From assembly GCA_002304315.1 (NCBI GenBank), contig NEUO01000015.1:1-39334 (forward strand): a stretch of DNA of 39,334 nt, in the 5' to 3' direction. The stretch is from Verrucomicrobiia bacterium Tous-C4TDCM (GTDB taxonomy: Bacteria; Verrucomicrobiota; Verrucomicrobiia; Verrucomicrobiales; Akkermansiaceae). Below are positions 17,544-23,708 of the stretch, one piece after another. Below the pieces are notes generated by a model. That model was given only the letters and a program-made list of their open reading frames with translations, had not been told where the DNA came from and made no database searches. Position 1 is the first letter of the stretch, and every line of letters starts with the position of its first letter. Position numbers and translations under genes: made by a program.

Positions 17544-17644
17544 CGGCGGAAATCCTCCACCACCCGGCAAGCCGCGGCAAGGCCCGGATGGAATGTGCTG
17601 ACTCGATCCGCCGGGCGGTATAAGGAATGCGGCACCGGATATCC

Positions 17645-17974
17645 ATGAACGAAGCCCCTGAAGTCCCCGCTCCGATACCCGAGGTTCCGAAGAACAAGCT
17701 ATGGGCGTCATTGTCGATCCCACCGGCCGTGACCGTCATGGGCACCTTCTTGGCGGGTGGCGCTCACACTGCGAGCAGCTATGGAATCGAGTTCCTCTTC
17801 GTCTTGCCCGTTGGATTGCTGACGATTTTCTGCTGCCTCGTCACTTTCATCAACGCGTGGAAAGTCCGTTACCGCGGCCGCTCGCTCGTCTTGACGTCCA
17901 TCGGCTACGTTCTCGGCCAGATCATCCTCTGCCTCGGACTCTGGTTCGGCACCTGTTTGCTTTTTGTTTCCTGA
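17645..17974 (+). CDS. Small membrane protein upstream of the radical SAM gene
   Basis: A 109-residue protein with a proline-rich N-terminus (EAPEVPAPIPEVP) and three likely membrane helices (about 27-45, 48-70, 81-107). I do not recognise it. The ATG at 17645 was chosen; the frame opens at 17627, but the first codons of that version look non-coding. The stop codon is only three bases before the radical SAM start, so the two are almost certainly co-transcribed. A membrane partner or anchor for the radical SAM enzyme is a reasonable guess, not a finding. Confidence 0.7.
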   Translation: MNEAPEVPAPIPEVPKNKLWASLSIPPAVTVMGTFLAGGAHTASSYGIEFLFVLPVGLLTIFCCLVTFINAWKVRYRGRSLVLTSIGYVLGQIILCLGLWFGTCLLFVS

Positions 17975-17977
17975 CCC

Positions 17978-19330
17978 ATGCTCCCGCGCACCTTCAAGGA
18001 AACCCTCAAGCGGACCACCTCCCGCTGCCCCGTCTGCCAGCAGCCTGCCCCGGCGGAGGTCTGGAAAACCACCGGCAGCCCGTCAAAAGTCTATCTCACC
18101 CGGACCTGCGACGCCCACGGCGAGAACACCGCCTGCCTCGCCAGCGACGCCCGCTTTTACTGGCTCGCCCAAGGCGATCCGTCAAACGCCTGCGGTCCTG
18201 CCTGCGCCTGCTCGGCCGATCCCGCCGGCCGCGCCGGGACGCTCGGCCGCAACGCCGCCGCCACCGATCCGGCAGTCGAGGTGCTTTCGACCTGCCTCGC
18301 GCTGATCGAAATCGTCGATTCCTGCAACCTCGCCTGCCCGACCTGTTTCGCCGACTCGCCGGTCGGCGCGGCGGGCGACCGGCTGAAAGCGCACTCGCTC
18401 GAATCGCTGCAAGGGCGCATCCGCGGCGTGGTCGAGCGCAAGGGCAACATCGAGATCCTCCAACTCTCCGGCGGCGAGCCGACCCTCCATCCGCAATTCT
18501 TCGAGCTGCTTGACTGGATCCACGCCGAACCCGGCATCGACTACTGCCTCGTGAACACCAACGCGGTGCGGATCGCAAAGGAGGACGGCTTCCTCGCGGC
18601 CCTCGGTGAACGAGCGCGGCGCGGGCATTTCCAGCTCTACCTGCAATTCGACGGGCCGCAGGAAGCCGGTCAGCGCGAGCTGAGGGGCAGCGACCTCCGC
18701 GACATGAAGCGGCTCGCGATGGAGCGCTGCGAGCGGGAAGGCATTCCGTTCACGCTGGCGATGACCATCACGCCGGAAAACCTGCCGCACCTCTGGGCGA
18801 CCATCGAAACCGGCCTCCGCTACTCCTGCTGCCGCGGCGTCTCCTTCCAGCCGATGTTTCTAACAGGCCGGAGGCCCGCGGCCGCGGCGAAGCGGCTGAA
18901 TACCGCCGACATCATCCTCGGCGCGGTGGAGCAAGCGGCCGGCCGGCTGCGCTTCGAGGACTTCACGCCGCTGCCCTGCGGCGATCCGAACTGCGCGACC
19001 ATCGGCTACCTGTTGCGCACGCCGATCGGCGTCAGGAGCATCTCCGAGTTCATCGACTTCGCCAGCCTCCAGGGCTTCCTGCGCGACAAGGTGCGCTACG
19101 AGCTTTCCGACCTGATCCAGTGCGGCTGCGAGAACACCGAGCTCGGCGAGATCCTGCACCGTTTCGAGATGAAGGAGCGCGACGCCTTCCGTCTCTTCAT
19201 CAAGCCCTTCATGGACGCCTGGACCTGGGACCAGGACCGCATCGACCGCTGCTGCACCCACGTGATCCGACCGGATGGAAAGCTGGACTCGTTCTGCCGG
19301 TACTACTCGGGATTCCGCGACGCGTCATGA
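17978..19330 (+). CDS. Cysteine-rich radical SAM protein of the Tes/MJ0619-like group
   Basis: A 450-residue radical SAM enzyme. The cluster motif CxxxCxxC is Cys116, Cys120, Cys123 (SCNLACPTC), followed by the SAM-binding LQLSGGEPTLHPQF. What sets it apart is the extra cysteines. N-terminal CPVC (17, 20), TRTC (44) and a dense ACGPACACS (72, 76, 78) resemble a rubredoxin-like site plus a second cluster. The C-terminal set is PCGDPNC (334, 339), QCGC (382, 384), CC (425, 426) and FCRYY (440). This pattern, including the ending CCTHVIRPDGKLDSFCRYY, is how I recognise the MJ0619/tetraether-synthase family, whose studied members join lipid chains tail to tail with several iron-sulfur clusters. 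Bacterial homologs are linked to membrane-spanning lipids. The substrate here is unproven. It lies in an operon with a small membrane protein and an Lgt-like protein. Confidence 0.85.
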   Translation: MLPRTFKETLKRTTSRCPVCQQPAPAEVWKTTGSPSKVYLTRTCDAHGENTACLASDARFYWLAQGDPSNACGPACACSADPAGRAGTLGRNAAATDPAVEVLSTCLALIEIVDSCNLACPTCFADSPVGAAGDRLKAHSLESLQGRIRGVVERKGNIEILQLSGGEPTLHPQFFELLDWIHAEPGIDYCLVNTNAVRIAKEDGFLAALGERARRGHFQLYLQFDGPQEAGQRELRGSDLRDMKRLAMERCEREGIPFTLAMTITPENLPHLWATIETGLRYSCCRGVSFQPMFLTGRRPAAAAKRLNTADIILGAVEQAAGRLRFEDFTPLPCGDPNCATIGYLLRTPIGVRSISEFIDFASLQGFLRDKVRYELSDLIQCGCENTELGEILHRFEMKERDAFRLFIKPFMDAWTWDQDRIDRCCTHVIRPDGKLDSFCRYYSGFRDAS

Positions 19331-19342
19331 GCCCATGATCCC

Positions 19343-20023
19343 ATGCCCGTAGCCTCCGGTTCTCCCGTTTACGCCCTGATGATGCTGCTCGGCATCGTGA
19401 TCGGCGGCGTCTATTGGTTCCGCGTTTCGAAAACCGACGGCCGCCTGCCCCTGATCTACTTCGGCGGCTTGGTCGGGGCTTTCACCGGGGCCAAGTTCGC
19501 GTATCTCCTCGCGGAAGGCTGGCTGCATGTCGATCACCCGCTGCGCTGGCAGCTCTGGCTGTCGGGAAAGTCCATCATGGGTGCCCTGCCCGGCGGCTGG
19601 GCCGGAGTGGAAATCGTCAAGCGCGCGATGGAATACCGCGCGGTGACCGGCGACCGCTTCGCCCTGCTGTTGCCGATCCCGCTGATCCTCGGCCGGATCG
19701 GTTGCCTGAGCGCCGGCTGCTGCCCTGGCATCGTTTGCCCCTTCGGCAAGTGGCCCGCCGTGCCGGTGGAAATCGGCTTCCAAGCCGCGGCGCTGGTCGC
19801 GCTTCTCGTGATGCGGGCCCGCCATTGGCAGGTCGGCCAGCATTTCCATCTCTATCTCATCGGCTACGGCTTCTTCCGCTTCGGCCACGAGTTCCTGCGG
19901 AACACCCCGAAGCCTTTTGCAGGGCTCTCGGGCTACCAGATCCTCGCGCTGGCCACCGCGGCGGCGGCCATGATCGCCCACCGGCGGAGAGCCGTGTCAG
20001 GGACGGGAACGCCCGAAAAATAA
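19343..20023 (+). CDS. Lgt-like (prolipoprotein diacylglyceryl transferase family) membrane protein
   Basis: A 226-residue polytopic membrane protein related to Lgt, which moves the diacylglyceryl group of phosphatidylglycerol to lipoprotein cysteines. The family signature appears as GRIGCLSAGCCPG (117-129) and the C-terminal motif as YGFFRFGHEFLR (175-186). It is shorter than housekeeping Lgt (about 260-290). It has the Cys-rich GxxGCC form seen in the divergent Lgt-like group rather than the usual GRxGNFxNGE, so it may act on a different acceptor. It starts 12 bases after the radical SAM gene and is surely in the same operon. A pairing of two lipid-active enzymes suggests joint modification of membrane lipids, which is inference. 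Confidence 0.82.
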   Translation: MPVASGSPVYALMMLLGIVIGGVYWFRVSKTDGRLPLIYFGGLVGAFTGAKFAYLLAEGWLHVDHPLRWQLWLSGKSIMGALPGGWAGVEIVKRAMEYRAVTGDRFALLLPIPLILGRIGCLSAGCCPGIVCPFGKWPAVPVEIGFQAAALVALLVMRARHWQVGQHFHLYLIGYGFFRFGHEFLRNTPKPFAGLSGYQILALATAAAAMIAHRRRAVSGTGTPEK

Positions 20024-20291: not shown

Positions 20292-23200
20292 ATGACCGCT
20301 CGATCTAGCGATCGAATCGAATCCCGAGGATTCGCCTTGGTCGTTTCAATCTCACTGATGGTGCTGTTGACGGTCGTGGCGATCGGACTGCTGGGGCTCT
20401 CCGCAGTCTCGTTGCGCAGCAGTTCCCAACAAGCAGCGCAGTCCGAAGCCCGGGCCAACGCCAGAATGGCCCTGATCCTGGCCATGGGGCAATTGCAGAA
20501 GGCGATGGGACCGGACGCCCGGATCAGCGCGCGGGCCGGGACACTGGCCAAGGATTCACGGCTCGGTGCCTCCGTGGGCCCCAACACCGCAAAGGCCTGG
20601 TGGGTCGGCGTCGCCGGCAGCAATCGTGACAAAGGCCTTGATTCGAGCAACCCCGTCGGCTCCGGGAACCCGGCGGTCGTCTGGCTGGTCTCCGGCCTGG
20701 ATCCTCAAGCCCCTCCCGAGGCGCAGATCACCGCAGCAAAGCCCTTCAATTCCGCGGTTCTCATGTTTGGCGACAACAGTATTGATACGGCCGCCCTGAC
20801 GGGGGGCGAGCCGATCCAGGCCGGCAACGTGACGATCACCGGCCAAAGCGACGGGACTTCGGGAGGATTCGCCTACTTTATCGACGACAACGGGATGAAG
20901 GCGCAGTTGGCTGCCAACCACCCGAATTTGCGCAACGACCGCCAGCCGCCAAACGGCGGTGGTGTCCTGCCCGGCACTTACGACCTGAGCATCCTCGATA
21001 ACATGGCCAGCCTGAAAGGGGCGGCGCGCGAGGATTACCTCCGGCTCCTTTCGGTGAACGATCTTCCACTGATCGCCGATGACAAGAGGATCGCCCGGAG
21101 CAAGCGTTTCGGTTATACCACCCTCTCCCGGGGCGTGCTCTCGGATGTGCGCAAAGGCGGGCTGAAACGTGACCTGACCATCGCCTTCGAGAGGGATAGC
21201 GTGTTCGCGAATGTCTTCCCCAAGGGCAGCTCCGGATTCGGTGAAGCATACCTCGTGCTGGACTCGAAGAGGCTGTCGCAGAGTCCTGACCTCCAAACCA
21301 ACGGCTACATCCACTGGGAGATGTTCAAGGACCACTACAATATCAAAAAACACATCAAGAAGAGCGGTTCCATTTCTTACCTCGACTCCATTCTCATTAA
21401 CAAGAACGGGATTTTCAGCGGTCTTGAAACCCCTTTCGCAAGAGGCCAGCTGGGGCCCCACAACATCGGACAGGCCACCGCGCCGGCACCCCACCAGGCG
21501 ATGCCCTACGGCGACTACCAGCCCATCGCGGCACCATCCAATACGGACGAATACAAGCACAGCCCGGTGATTCCAATCCTTTCACGCATGCAGCAGAACG
21601 CATGGGTGGAGCGGCGGCAGCCCGACAAGATCCGGACCAACGTCCAGCTCTGGCAGGCCCAGTACAATCCATACAACGTCGGCCTCAATGTGGTCGGAGA
21701 TTCTCCCCAGTTCGGGCCCAGGTTCATTCATTACCCCCAGATCTATTTCACCATCAGCGGAATGACGGTCAAGGATGCCGGTGGTTCGACATTCCCGCTC
21801 AACAACATATCCGGGCACTCGGGGAAGCGCCAGTCGAGTGTTCCGCATGAGGTGCTTCTTGGCCCGGGCAGGAGTCATGTTTTTGCTTTCAAGGATTACG
21901 GGGCGGTTGGCCGTGACGACGACGATTTCCTGTATGACGACAGTGTGAAAAACCTCACCTTGCAGAGCATTTACCGGGAGTTTGATCTCGTTTCGGCACC
22001 GGATTCCATGACGCTCAAGGTGGACTTCGTGCTTGAGCGGCCCTCGATGATCCACGGCGCCAATTCCAATTCGTACAATGCCAATCATGAGGTCGCGCAA
22101 ACCCTTTGGGCGCCTTTCGCCTGGGATGCAATCAATGGCAACCTGCCGGGCAAGACCATGACCAAGAGCGGAATCAGCCCGGGCCAGTTGAACGAGAATT
22201 CCATGCTTTCCTTCGGGTTCAACCTGCGCACCACCAAGGAGGGCGGGGGCGCCATCCGACCGCTCGTCGACGCGAACATCCGCGCCATGTTCGGCAATAC
22301 CAAGTGGGATTCGCCGCTGGGAGTCGACCTGCTCGCCGCCTACTCGCCCAGGAACCGCGGAGTAATAGACGAGCAGATTCCCCAGATGAATGTCTCGGAC
22401 AACCCCAAAGGCTACACCTACTGGGGTGCGGGACTTGATGCCGCCGACGGATACGACCGGGTGATCCTGTTCGACATCCCGCGTGACGACCTCTTGTCGC
22501 TCGGGCAACTCCAGCACGCCGGAGTCGGCCGCTTCAGTTATGAGCCCACCTACATCGTGGGCAACTCTTACGCCAATCCCAGGATCGGCCTCAACCAATG
22601 GAAGACCTCGGTCAGCGACACCTTCAGCACGGCTTCCCGCGGGCTTCAGGAATACCAGATTCCCGGACAATTCAACCTCTATGACGCCTCCTTCCTGGTG
22701 AACGAGGAACTCTGGGACAGCTATATCTTTACCACCATCCCGCAGGCGGCGGACAACGTGAGCGGCAGCACGCCCGAGCCCGCGCCGAGTGCCGCGCACT
22801 TTACGAACCTGCTGCAGGGCACAGCCCTGCTGCCGAATCCGCGCTTCATTCCCTACGAACCCCGCGGCTCGAAGTTCGACAAGTCGACCTTGCAGATGAC
22901 CACCGCTTCGCGGGCCACCACCGGCGGATTCTACCACAATGCCGGCCATCTCCTCGTCGATGGGGCCTTCAACGTCAATTCCACTTCCGTCGATGCTTGG
23001 GAGGCGTTCCTCTCCGGAACCCACGAACTGCCCTATCAGAAACTGAGTGCCGACTCCACGGTGACGGGATTCTCACCGCCAGGGAATGTCAAGGGAGTGC
23101 GCTTTCCACGCGTGAAGGCGGTCTTCGGCAAGGGCACGGAAACAAAGAACCTCGACGAGAACTACTGGATCGGCTTCCGCACCCTCGAACAGAAGGAAGT

Positions 23201-23708
23201 CCGCAGTTTGGCGGAGGCAATCGTCAGCGAGATCAGGAAACGCGGTCCGTTTCTCACTCTGGGCGAATTCGTCAACCGCAAGTTGGAGGACGGGGAGACC
23301 GGCCAGCGCGGACCCCTTCAGGCCGCCCTCGACATGACCGTGAACAAGGATCTCGACAAGGGCTTCGAGCAGTCTTCCGCTCATCCGAAAGTGCCCAAGG
23401 ACAGCACCCAGGGCGCGGGCTTTCCCGGACAGTTGCTCCAGGGAGACATCCTACAGGCGCTCTCGCCCTGCATGACGGTGCGTTCAGACAGCTTTACGAT
23501 CAGGGCCTACGGCGAGTCGCGCGCCACGGCAACCAATGAAGTGCGCGCGACAGCATGGTGCGAAGCCACGGTGCAACGCTATCCGGACCCGGTCGCGTCA
23601 AGCGTCGGCGCCGGTAATCCACTCAGTGACTTGGTCAATCCGGCCAGTAGATTCGGACGCTCCTTTCGCATGCTCTCGTTTCGTTGGCTGAATCGGAACG
23701 AAATTTGA
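20292..23708 (+). CDS. Verru_Chthon cassette protein A-type giant pseudopilin (cassette 1)
   Basis: A 1138-residue protein with a PilX/type IV pilin-like N-terminus: a short basic leader, then SRGFALVVSISLMVLL, a long hydrophobic helix and an amphipathic helix (SLRSSSQQAAQSEARANARM). Prepilin peptidase would cut after Gly13, although the usual Glu at +5 is Val. The remaining 1050 residues are a beta-rich extracellular body. A conserved C-terminal part (HLLVDGAFNVNSTSVDAW; GPFLTLGEFVNRKL; FTIRAYGESRA; ATAWCEATVQRYPDP; RMLSFRWLNRNEI) is also present in the protein at 34541-37903. These traits fit the verrucomicrobial 'cassette protein A' family. The usual B, C and D partners are absent. A small secreted protein gene follows after 22 bases. 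The role is unknown; export by a type II/IV-like system is likely. Confidence 0.82.
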   Translation: MTARSSDRIESRGFALVVSISLMVLLTVVAIGLLGLSAVSLRSSSQQAAQSEARANARMALILAMGQLQKAMGPDARISARAGTLAKDSRLGASVGPNTAKAWWVGVAGSNRDKGLDSSNPVGSGNPAVVWLVSGLDPQAPPEAQITAAKPFNSAVLMFGDNSIDTAALTGGEPIQAGNVTITGQSDGTSGGFAYFIDDNGMKAQLAANHPNLRNDRQPPNGGGVLPGTYDLSILDNMASLKGAAREDYLRLLSVNDLPLIADDKRIARSKRFGYTTLSRGVLSDVRKGGLKRDLTIAFERDSVFANVFPKGSSGFGEAYLVLDSKRLSQSPDLQTNGYIHWEMFKDHYNIKKHIKKSGSISYLDSILINKNGIFSGLETPFARGQLGPHNIGQATAPAPHQAMPYGDYQPIAAPSNTDEYKHSPVIPILSRMQQNAWVERRQPDKIRTNVQLWQAQYNPYNVGLNVVGDSPQFGPRFIHYPQIYFTISGMTVKDAGGSTFPLNNISGHSGKRQSSVPHEVLLGPGRSHVFAFKDYGAVGRDDDDFLYDDSVKNLTLQSIYREFDLVSAPDSMTLKVDFVLERPSMIHGANSNSYNANHEVAQTLWAPFAWDAINGNLPGKTMTKSGISPGQLNENSMLSFGFNLRTTKEGGGAIRPLVDANIRAMFGNTKWDSPLGVDLLAAYSPRNRGVIDEQIPQMNVSDNPKGYTYWGAGLDAADGYDRVILFDIPRDDLLSLGQLQHAGVGRFSYEPTYIVGNSYANPRIGLNQWKTSVSDTFSTASRGLQEYQIPGQFNLYDASFLVNEELWDSYIFTTIPQAADNVSGSTPEPAPSAAHFTNLLQGTALLPNPRFIPYEPRGSKFDKSTLQMTTASRATTGGFYHNAGHLLVDGAFNVNSTSVDAWEAFLSGTHELPYQKLSADSTVTGFSPPGNVKGVRFPRVKAVFGKGTETKNLDENYWIGFRTLEQKEVRSLAEAIVSEIRKRGPFLTLGEFVNRKLEDGETGQRGPLQAALDMTVNKDLDKGFEQSSAHPKVPKDSTQGAGFPGQLLQGDILQALSPCMTVRSDSFTIRAYGESRATATNEVRATAWCEATVQRYPDPVASSVGAGNPLSDLVNPASRFGRSFRMLSFRWLNRNEI

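What the first reader, a model, noticed from the sequence alone, without database searches (positions are those of the whole stretch)
17645..20023. Tes-like radical SAM enzyme in an operon with an Lgt-like protein: candidate lipid-linking module
The radical SAM protein has the CxxxCxxC site plus at least a dozen further cysteines arranged as in the MJ0619/tetraether synthase family, which couples lipid chains through several iron-sulfur clusters. The next gene, 12 bases away, is a short, divergent, Cys-rich Lgt-like protein. The gene before it, three bases away, is a small membrane protein. Two lipid-active enzymes in one operon suggest synthesis of a membrane-spanning or otherwise linked lipid, or of an unusual lipid anchor on proteins. 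The family resemblance is seen directly; the joint pathway is inference.
Basis: partly seen in the sequence, partly recalled or inferred. Interest (0 to 1): 0.75.

Follow-up and report, generated by a model that had tools for sequence, protein, structure and literature searches.

The report
Three-gene membrane-protein cysteine modification system
The window carries a three-gene set found in several bacterial phyla (a radical enzyme with the fold of an archaeal lipid-joining enzyme, a relative of the enzyme that puts lipid on cysteines, and a fast-changing small membrane protein with a constant cysteine near its tail), which looks like an undescribed way of attaching or altering lipids on membrane proteins.

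Summary
In detail: three co-directional genes (17645-17974 small membrane protein, 17978-19330 radical SAM, 19343-20023 Lgt-like), 3 and 12 bases apart. The radical SAM protein has the fold of tetraether synthase (best PDB match 7tol) but is not shown to be one: it scores far below the Tes cut-off, and Met439 and Tyr459 are replaced. The Lgt-like protein has the Lgt fold but lacks His103, Asn146 and Glu151; Cys replaces Asn146 in 18 of 18 proteins compared. The new point is the small membrane protein: a third component, often multi-copy, fast-changing, predicted N-in/C-out, with a cysteine near the C-terminus in 89 of 101 candidates. The same trio stands in Actinomycetota, Bacteroidota and the phylum of a genome labelled Hydrogenedentota. 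Best reading (0.45): the two enzymes lipidate, or tailor a lipid on, that cysteine. Gene conservation is shown; chemistry is inferred. A free membrane-spanning lipid is less likely.

The parts
17645..17974 (+). small membrane protein, 109 aa (in-frame ATG also at 17627): Pro-rich N-tail, three hydrophobic stretches by alignment (two pass my hydropathy limit), C-terminal ...WFGTCLLFVS
   Evidence: no Pfam or NCBIfam match over a cut-off
17954..17956 (+). codon of the conserved cysteine (Cys104 of 109; C110 in the numbering from 17627)
   Evidence: 89 of 101 candidates chosen by position and hydrophobicity alone have a last Cys 3-15 residues from the end; only column at or above 90% among 104 aligned small proteins, a set chosen for having a C-terminal Cys
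17978..19330 (+). radical SAM protein, 450 aa, with the fold of tetraether synthase (GDGT-MAS)
18026..18118 (+). rubredoxin-like metal site C17-x2-C20 ... C44-x2-H47
   Evidence: matches Tes C9xxC12...C33xxH36 (PMC9433317, passages)
18323..18346 (+). SAM cluster motif C116-x3-C120-x2-C123
   Evidence: invariant in 53 sequences
19250..19297 (+). C-terminal motif C425-C426 ... C440
   Evidence: invariant in 53 sequences; aligned with the Tes C-terminal motif
19343..20023 (+). Lgt-like membrane protein, 226 aa
19691..19705 (+). altered Lgt signature GRIGC (Arg143 kept, Asn146 replaced by Cys121)
   Evidence: GRxGC in 18 of 18 Lgt-like proteins, the window's included; Cys121 invariant in 51 aligned sequences

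Best explanation
The three genes are one system that modifies a small membrane protein. The small protein (N-terminus in the cytoplasm, usually three hydrophobic segments, C-terminus outside) places one cysteine at the outer face of the membrane, next to a Gly, as a lipobox does. The Lgt-like enzyme, whose fold and phospholipid-binding arginines are kept but whose His103, Asn146 and Glu151 are replaced, transfers a lipid part to, or otherwise works on, that cysteine. The Tes-fold radical SAM enzyme makes a carbon radical on an alkyl chain, on the lipid donor or on the attached lipid, and so tailors the anchor (C-C or C-S link, or methyl-type change). In one subfamily an ICMT/PEMT-like methyltransferase adds a further step. 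Shown: the gene set, its conservation, co-occurrence and one joint decay, the folds, the conserved cysteines, the predicted topology. Inferred: that the small protein is the substrate, that lipid is attached, and the order of steps.
For: Lgt-like gene downstream on the same strand in 71 of 80 loci, in 45 of them directly next to the rSAM. Genus: 9 of 18 genomes with both, 9 with neither, 0 discordant (Fisher p 4e-5, not corrected for kinship). Phylum: all 12 rSAM-positive of 383 genomes have the Lgt-like gene. Where the three genes lie far apart or on different contigs (G277, G306, G460) all three are still present. In G461 one locus shows remnants of all three genes fused by deletions. Small proteins: 101 candidates by position and hydrophobicity in 67 of 81 loci; 89 have the last Cys 3-15 residues from the end, in 66 of the 67 loci; Gly within three residues before it in 74 of 89 against 57 of 222 other Cys of the same proteins; N-in/C-out favoured in 75 of 75 Cys-bearing copies with exactly three segments, the side on which the Lgt active site lies (PMC4728403, passages). 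Small proteins diverge fastest: at rSAM identity 0.85-0.90 (15 pairs) Lgt-like averages 0.78 and small 0.44; 17 loci have two or more Cys-bearing copies within my limits and G373 has seven copies in one cluster, five with the Cys, as expected of substrates. Trio with Cys tails also in the phylum of the Hydrogenedentota-labelled genome, Bacteroidota and Actinomycetota. ICMT-like gene with some.
Against: No chemistry is shown. Copies without the Cys exist beside copies with it (5 of 24 copies in rSAM-positive genomes of the genus). G298 has two Cys-bearing copies but no rSAM or Lgt-like gene found, though near a contig end. G464 has rSAM and Lgt-like but no small protein at E <= 1e-4 by two profiles. 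14 of 81 loci show no adjacent small protein by my criteria. The Lgt-like protein lacks residues shown to be essential in E. coli Lgt (H103, E151; PMC4728403), so ordinary diacylglyceryl transfer cannot be assumed. The rSAM is cytosolic by homology while the Cys is predicted outside. In Actinomycetota the residue before the Cys is V, L or I, not a lipobox residue. The control for the Cys among other membrane ORFs was not clean (21 of 46).
Confidence: 0.45

Rival explanations
1. Lipid synthesis complex: the rSAM and the Lgt-like enzyme make an unusual free lipid, and the small proteins are accessory subunits (membrane docking, lipid presentation, or a cysteine that carries the growing lipid or contacts a cluster of the rSAM).
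For: Tes fold over the whole length; Lgt fold with phospholipid-binding arginines; the small protein is retained in three genomes where the genes are scattered (G277, G306, G460); Tes binds and joins lipids (PMC9433317, passages).
Against: Several diverging copies per locus and far faster change than the enzymes are unusual for a subunit; no further gene family is shared by more than 14 of the 81 loci (most of the rarer ones were not identified).
Confidence: 0.22
2. Peptide-type (RiPP-like) maturation: the rSAM crosslinks or alkylates the cysteine or its neighbours in the small membrane protein, with the Pro-rich cytosolic N-tail as recognition leader, and the Lgt-like protein helps or anchors.
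For: Variable, multi-copy, adjacent small genes with one constant residue; Pro-rich N-tails (Pro 17.7% over 71 tails); the second-best solved fold is the RiPP maturase SkfB.
Against: The best solved fold is the lipid enzyme 7tol, 19 orders of magnitude of E-value ahead of the next protein; Pfam finds no SPASM domain in the window's protein; the target Cys is predicted on the outer side.
Confidence: 0.15
3. One reading: synthesis of a membrane-spanning (diabolic or tetraether-like) lipid by a bacterial Tes homologue; the Lgt-like gene supplies or rearranges glycerolipids.
For: Bacterial Tes homologues have been proposed for brGDGT synthesis (PMC8941075, passages); the C-terminal cysteines are kept.
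Against: 148 bits against the Tes cut-off of 450; [quoted passage not shown] separate branch from the partial Tes row, with long branches; the constant third partner is a protein.
Confidence: 0.1
4. Unlinked functions kept together by chance or by horizontal transfer as a cassette.
For: Patchy distribution: 12 of 383 genomes of the phylum.
Against: rSAM and Lgt-like genes co-occur in the genus without exception, also when they lie apart, and the same trio stands in other phyla.
Confidence: 0.03

Closest known systems
Tetraether synthase Tes / GDGT-MAS (MJ0619, PDB 7tol)
   Same: Whole-length fold (Foldseek E 1.9e-28, TM 0.74 by query), rubredoxin-like site, SAM cluster, C-terminal CC...C motif
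   Different: 22% identity, 148 bits against a cut-off of 450; Met439 and Tyr459 replaced; one of three Cys of the N-terminal cluster not conserved; beside Lgt-like and small-protein genes
TrsS (NCBIfam NF045646, radical SAM (seleno)protein)
   Same: Best-scoring NCBIfam model (200.7 bits)
   Different: Cut-off 490. Three relatives beside a methyltransferase (L087, L090, L091) have no annotated Lgt-like gene in the stretches seen and are not among the Lgt-like matches. Function of TrsS not found
Prolipoprotein diacylglyceryl transferase Lgt (PDB 5azb)
   Same: Fold (E 3.1e-6, the only solved match below 0.001), Arg143, Glu202, Tyr235, Arg239, Glu243, Arg246
   Different: His103, Asn146, Glu151 replaced; about 60 residues shorter; a canonical Lgt is present elsewhere in the genome
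Mss, bacterial membrane-spanning lipid synthase
   Same: A lipid-joining enzyme said to share Tes architecture (PMC13274423, passages)
   Different: No Mss sequence was at hand, so not compared
C-terminal sorting signals with a cysteine (MYXO-CTERM; NCBIfam 'lipo-invert' tail NF058595)
   Same: Cysteine near a C-terminal membrane segment (MYXO-CTERM: start of the abstract of PMC11980579 in the listing)
   Different: Here the proteins are tiny and multi-spanning; NF058595 matched 1 of 104 small proteins at E 0.0046, noise level; what that model stands for was not seen

Membership tests
Tes / GDGT-MAS | SAM cluster CxxxCxxC in a Tes-like fold | tested here: met
Tes / GDGT-MAS | rubredoxin-like CxxC...CxxH | tested here: met
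   C17, C20, C44, H47
Tes / GDGT-MAS | N-terminal cluster C73, C77, C80 plus His | tested here: not met
   C72 and C78 at or above 90%, C76 not conserved
Tes / GDGT-MAS | C-terminal cluster cysteines (ligand assignment is my reading of the alignment) | tested here: met
   C425, C426, C440 invariant
Tes / GDGT-MAS | Tyr459 (strictly conserved) and labile ligand Met439 | tested here: not met
   V429 and K409
Tes / GDGT-MAS | NCBIfam NF045702 cut-off, 450 bits | tested here: not met
   148 bits
Tes / GDGT-MAS | joins alkyl chain ends of lipids | not testable with these tools
   needs biochemistry
TrsS | NCBIfam NF045646 cut-off, 490 bits | tested here: not met
   200.7 bits
Lgt | Pfam LGT and Lgt fold | tested here: met
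Lgt | essential His103 of the HGGL motif | tested here: not met
   SIMGAL in the window; no His there in the consensus of 51; own canonical Lgt has SHGGILG
Lgt | signature G-R-x-G-N...N-G-E (Asn146, Glu151) | tested here: not met
   GRIGCLSAGCC
Lgt | Arg143, Arg239, Glu243 | tested here: met
   R118, R179 invariant, E183 at least 90%
Lgt | NCBIfam TIGR00544 cut-off, 118.9 bits | tested here: not met
   34.7 bits
Mss | sequence kinship to characterised Mss | not tested
   no sequence at hand
small membrane protein in any curated family | recurrent match to a Pfam or NCBIfam family | tested here: not met
   104 members scanned; no family matched more than two of them, best E-values 3e-6 (Pfam SPW, one member) and 2e-4 (NCBIfam, one member)

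The most novel reading that the evidence does not exclude
A previously undescribed bacterial protein-lipidation pathway: small multi-spanning membrane proteins with a conserved C-terminal cysteine receive a lipid through an Lgt paralogue that uses its own active-site cysteine, and a Tes-fold radical SAM enzyme then forms a C-C or C-S bond in the attached lipid, possibly linking two anchors or two chains across the membrane. The small proteins would be its rapidly diverging, multi-copy cargo.
Probability: 0.3. Interest if true: 0.9.

Novelty: new variant of a known kind. Interest (0 to 1): 0.75.

Why it matters
Bacterial homologues of tetraether synthase have been read as candidates for membrane-spanning lipid synthesis (PMC8941075, PMC11868695, passages). 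This branch is instead tied to an altered Lgt and a cysteine-bearing small membrane protein, which would change how such hits are used as lipid markers and would add a protein-lipidation route beside Lgt. Named isolates that carry the radical SAM gene (Chthoniobacter flavus, Haloferula, Luteolibacter marinus, Roseibacillus) make it directly testable by deletion and mass spectrometry.

Tried and rejected
Tes or Mss membership: Tes features tested, three not met; Mss could not be compared. Plain Lgt paralogue for ordinary lipoproteins: set aside because His103, Asn146 and Glu151 are gone, a canonical Lgt is present in the own genome, and 5 of 5 further genomes have a second, stronger LGT match (motifs of those not read). 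A further shared neighbour gene: apart from the trio no cluster reached more than 14 of 81 loci, and several of the clusters are shadow frames; a DUF116-polyprenyl synthetase gene upstream in 6 loci may be local synteny. NCBIfam 'lipo-invert' tail: noise level. Control for the C-terminal Cys among other small membrane ORFs of the same loci: 21 of 46 also had it; reading them I judged 15 of the 21 to be further copies of the same family just outside my position limits, which leaves 6 of 31. That sorting was by eye on the tails, so this control is not independent. The first iterative Lgt profile took in shadow frames and was dropped; counts use a single-query search (recounted). The first Cys table for the genus read minus-strand loci on the wrong strand; one search then picked some neighbouring copies twice; the totals 19 of 24 and 2 of 7 come from combining both by hand, with one G298 tail and one G459 copy judged from the matching locus L009. 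Promoter, terminator and Rfam scans of the window gave nothing useful.
Full report
What is there. Three co-directional genes lie at 17645-20023: a 109-aa small membrane protein, a 450-aa radical SAM protein 3 bases further, and a 226-aa Lgt-like membrane protein 12 bases further. The window is contig C57 of a 4.28-Mb, 72% complete genome. Its phylum is not told; its nearest relatives by record title are Haloferula, Luteolibacter and other Verrucomicrobiota, and I call it Verrucomicrobiota on that ground.

The radical SAM protein. Pfam finds Radical_SAM and the HMPTM zinc ribbon. The best NCBIfam models are TrsS (200.7 bits, cut-off 490) and Tes (148 bits, cut-off 450), so it reaches neither. 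The best solved relative by sequence is GDGT-MAS, 7tol (1.7e-30; 9.4e-50 with a profile of 53 sequences). An AlphaFold2 model (mean pLDDT 78.7, pTM 0.84; weak at residues 72-76, 116-130 and 365-391) matches 7tol at E 1.9e-28 over 505 columns, TM 0.74; the next protein, SkfB, is at 2.8e-9. The rubredoxin-like site, SAM motif and C-terminal CC...C are kept. Met439 and Tyr459 of Tes (PMC9433317, passages read) correspond to Lys409 and Val429, both invariant in the 53 sequences. In a tree of 24 rows the window type joins the actinobacterial rows (99/97) and the partial Tes row joins the methyltransferase-linked rows; the tool warns that both joins are of long branches and may be false, and the root is a midpoint. 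So: it is built like Tes, and is not shown to be Tes.

The Lgt-like protein. Its model (pLDDT 93.9) has one solved match below 0.001, E. coli Lgt (3.1e-6, TM 0.64). In the profile alignment Arg143, Glu202, Tyr235, Arg239, Glu243 and Arg246 are kept; His103, Asn146 and Glu151 are not. PMC4728403 (passages) reports that His103, Arg143 and Glu151 mutants are inactive. All 18 Lgt-like proteins that I compared, the window's included, read G-R-x-G-C. The own genome has a canonical Lgt with SHGGILG and NFINGELYG, and 5 of 5 further genomes have a second, stronger LGT match.

Pairing. A scan of one genome for each of 84,980 species gave 127 relatives, of which the best 80 were kept. In 71 of the 80 the Lgt-like gene lies downstream on the same strand (in 45 directly next to the rSAM), in one upstream (L080), in one on the other strand (L032), in seven not found; three of those seven contigs end within 1.2 kb (L012, L014, L085). 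L026, one of the seven, matches G277 in contig length (165,449 bases) and rSAM place, and G277 has its Lgt-like gene elsewhere. Some loci are near-duplicates (e.g. L010-L011, L052-L053), so the 80 are not independent. Across the phylum 12 of 383 genomes have the rSAM (E <= 1e-20) and all 12 have the Lgt-like gene (E <= 1.7e-12); 43 other genomes have Lgt hits up to 1e-4, the best G250 at 1.6e-13. In the genus, 9 of 18 genomes have both (E <= 1e-40 and 1e-30) and 9 neither.

The third component. Upstream of the rSAM or between rSAM and Lgt-like gene lie small membrane proteins. Taking every ORF of at least 50 aa with two or more hydrophobic segments at those positions gave 101 ORFs in 67 of 81 loci (the window and the 80); a few are probably shadow frames. 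In 89 of 101 the last Cys is 3-15 residues from the end, in 66 of the 67 loci; 17 loci have two to four such copies. Aligning 104 Cys-bearing copies, including other phyla, leaves one column at or above 90%: that Cys, in a consensus F-G-x-C (the set was chosen for having a C-terminal Cys). Charged residues put N-terminus and second loop inside (means 2.37 and 3.13 K+R) and first loop and tail outside (0.75 and 0.41); N-in/C-out is favoured in 75 of 75 Cys-bearing copies with exactly three segments. They change fastest, though near-identical pairs exist (L052-L053 0.90, L066-L071 0.95) and swapping of copies inflates the effect (L010-L011: rSAM 0.99, small 0.48). They match no curated family more than singly or at noise level.

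Beyond Verrucomicrobiota. L084 comes from a genome titled Hydrogenedentota; in the phylum group of that genome 8 of 68 genomes match (names not told). Three are of the window type with Cys-tailed small proteins. Five have rSAM with an ICMT/PEMT-like and an Lgt-like gene; in the three of these with enough flank (G388, G391, G398) small proteins with tails such as FFGxC follow, three in tandem in G398. Two distant members of the window's phylum (L092, L093) have the same four-gene set. Persicobacter (Bacteroidota): Lgt-like, rSAM, then a 59-aa protein with two hydrophobic segments ending GTGICGSLLS. Mycobacterium branderi and Nonomuraea (Actinomycetota): Lgt-like, small proteins with Cys tails, and rSAM. 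Relatives in Mycolicibacterium and two haloarchaea lie beside a methyltransferase with no annotated Lgt-like gene in the stretches seen.

Does the cysteine go with the enzymes? In the genus, small homologues (E <= 1e-4, two profiles) were found in 8 of 9 enzyme-positive genomes (not G464) and 4 of 9 negative ones. Copies with a Cys within 15 residues of the end: 19 of 24 in positives, 2 of 7 in negatives (both in G298, near a contig end); the copies in G177 (two) and G455 lack it (Fisher p 0.02 on non-independent copies). G461 holds a decayed locus: the small gene runs into rSAM sequence and a middle piece of rSAM runs into the end of the Lgt-like gene. There the set decayed as a unit.

How it works. 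The target and direction of modification are inferred. The cysteine sits, by predicted topology, on the side where Lgt works, behind a hydrophobic stretch and a Gly, much as in a lipobox, but at the C-terminal end. Variable, multi-copy, adjacent genes with one constant residue look like substrates. A Tes-fold enzyme acts on alkyl chains. Hence: lipid attachment by the Lgt-like enzyme and radical tailoring of that lipid. The weak points are the changed Lgt active site, the side of the membrane on which the rSAM works, and Cys-less copies.

Literature. Bacterial Tes homologues have been reported and proposed for brGDGT synthesis (PMC8941075, PMC11868695, passages); the passages I saw mention no Lgt-like partner. 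My searches for the combination listed no paper whose title or abstract start describes it; most subscription papers are not in that library.

Noticed in passing
window 20292-23708: 1138-aa protein beginning like Verru_Chthon cassette protein A (TIGR02600, residues 13-72 only, far below cut-off), followed by a 222-aa ORF without family match.
   Followed up: partly
L057 3684-5426 and similar ORFs in L062, L064, L072, L075, L083: A DUF116-polyprenyl synthetase gene (Pfam run on L057 only; the others by similarity) ends about 0.5-2.0 kb upstream of the rSAM start in six related genomes; isoprenoid link or local synteny, not resolved.
   Followed up: partly
L092 6093-6740, L093 5853-6407, L094 5577-6230, L109-L113: ICMT/PEMT-like methyltransferase gene in the same cluster in one subfamily.
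   Followed up: partly
L143 (G461:C39:61395): Decayed copy of the whole operon: remnants of small, rSAM and Lgt-like genes fused by deletions.
   Followed up: yes
L030 7114-7116: The rSAM gene of Roseibacillus ishigakijimensis is interrupted by one in-frame TAA just before the conserved CGC motif; decay or sequencing error, and not a selenocysteine UGA.
   Followed up: partly
L087, L090, L091: Distant relatives of the rSAM beside a methyltransferase on mycobacterial and haloarchaeal plasmids, with CcdA-type, DsrE, TauE/SafE or DUF3179 genes nearby.
   Followed up: no
L067 11977-12141: A second, partial match to the rSAM about 4.7 kb downstream of the first.
   Followed up: no
L095 5293-6861: The Lgt-like domain of this distant member lies at the end of a 522-aa open frame; true start or fusion not resolved.
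   Followed up: no
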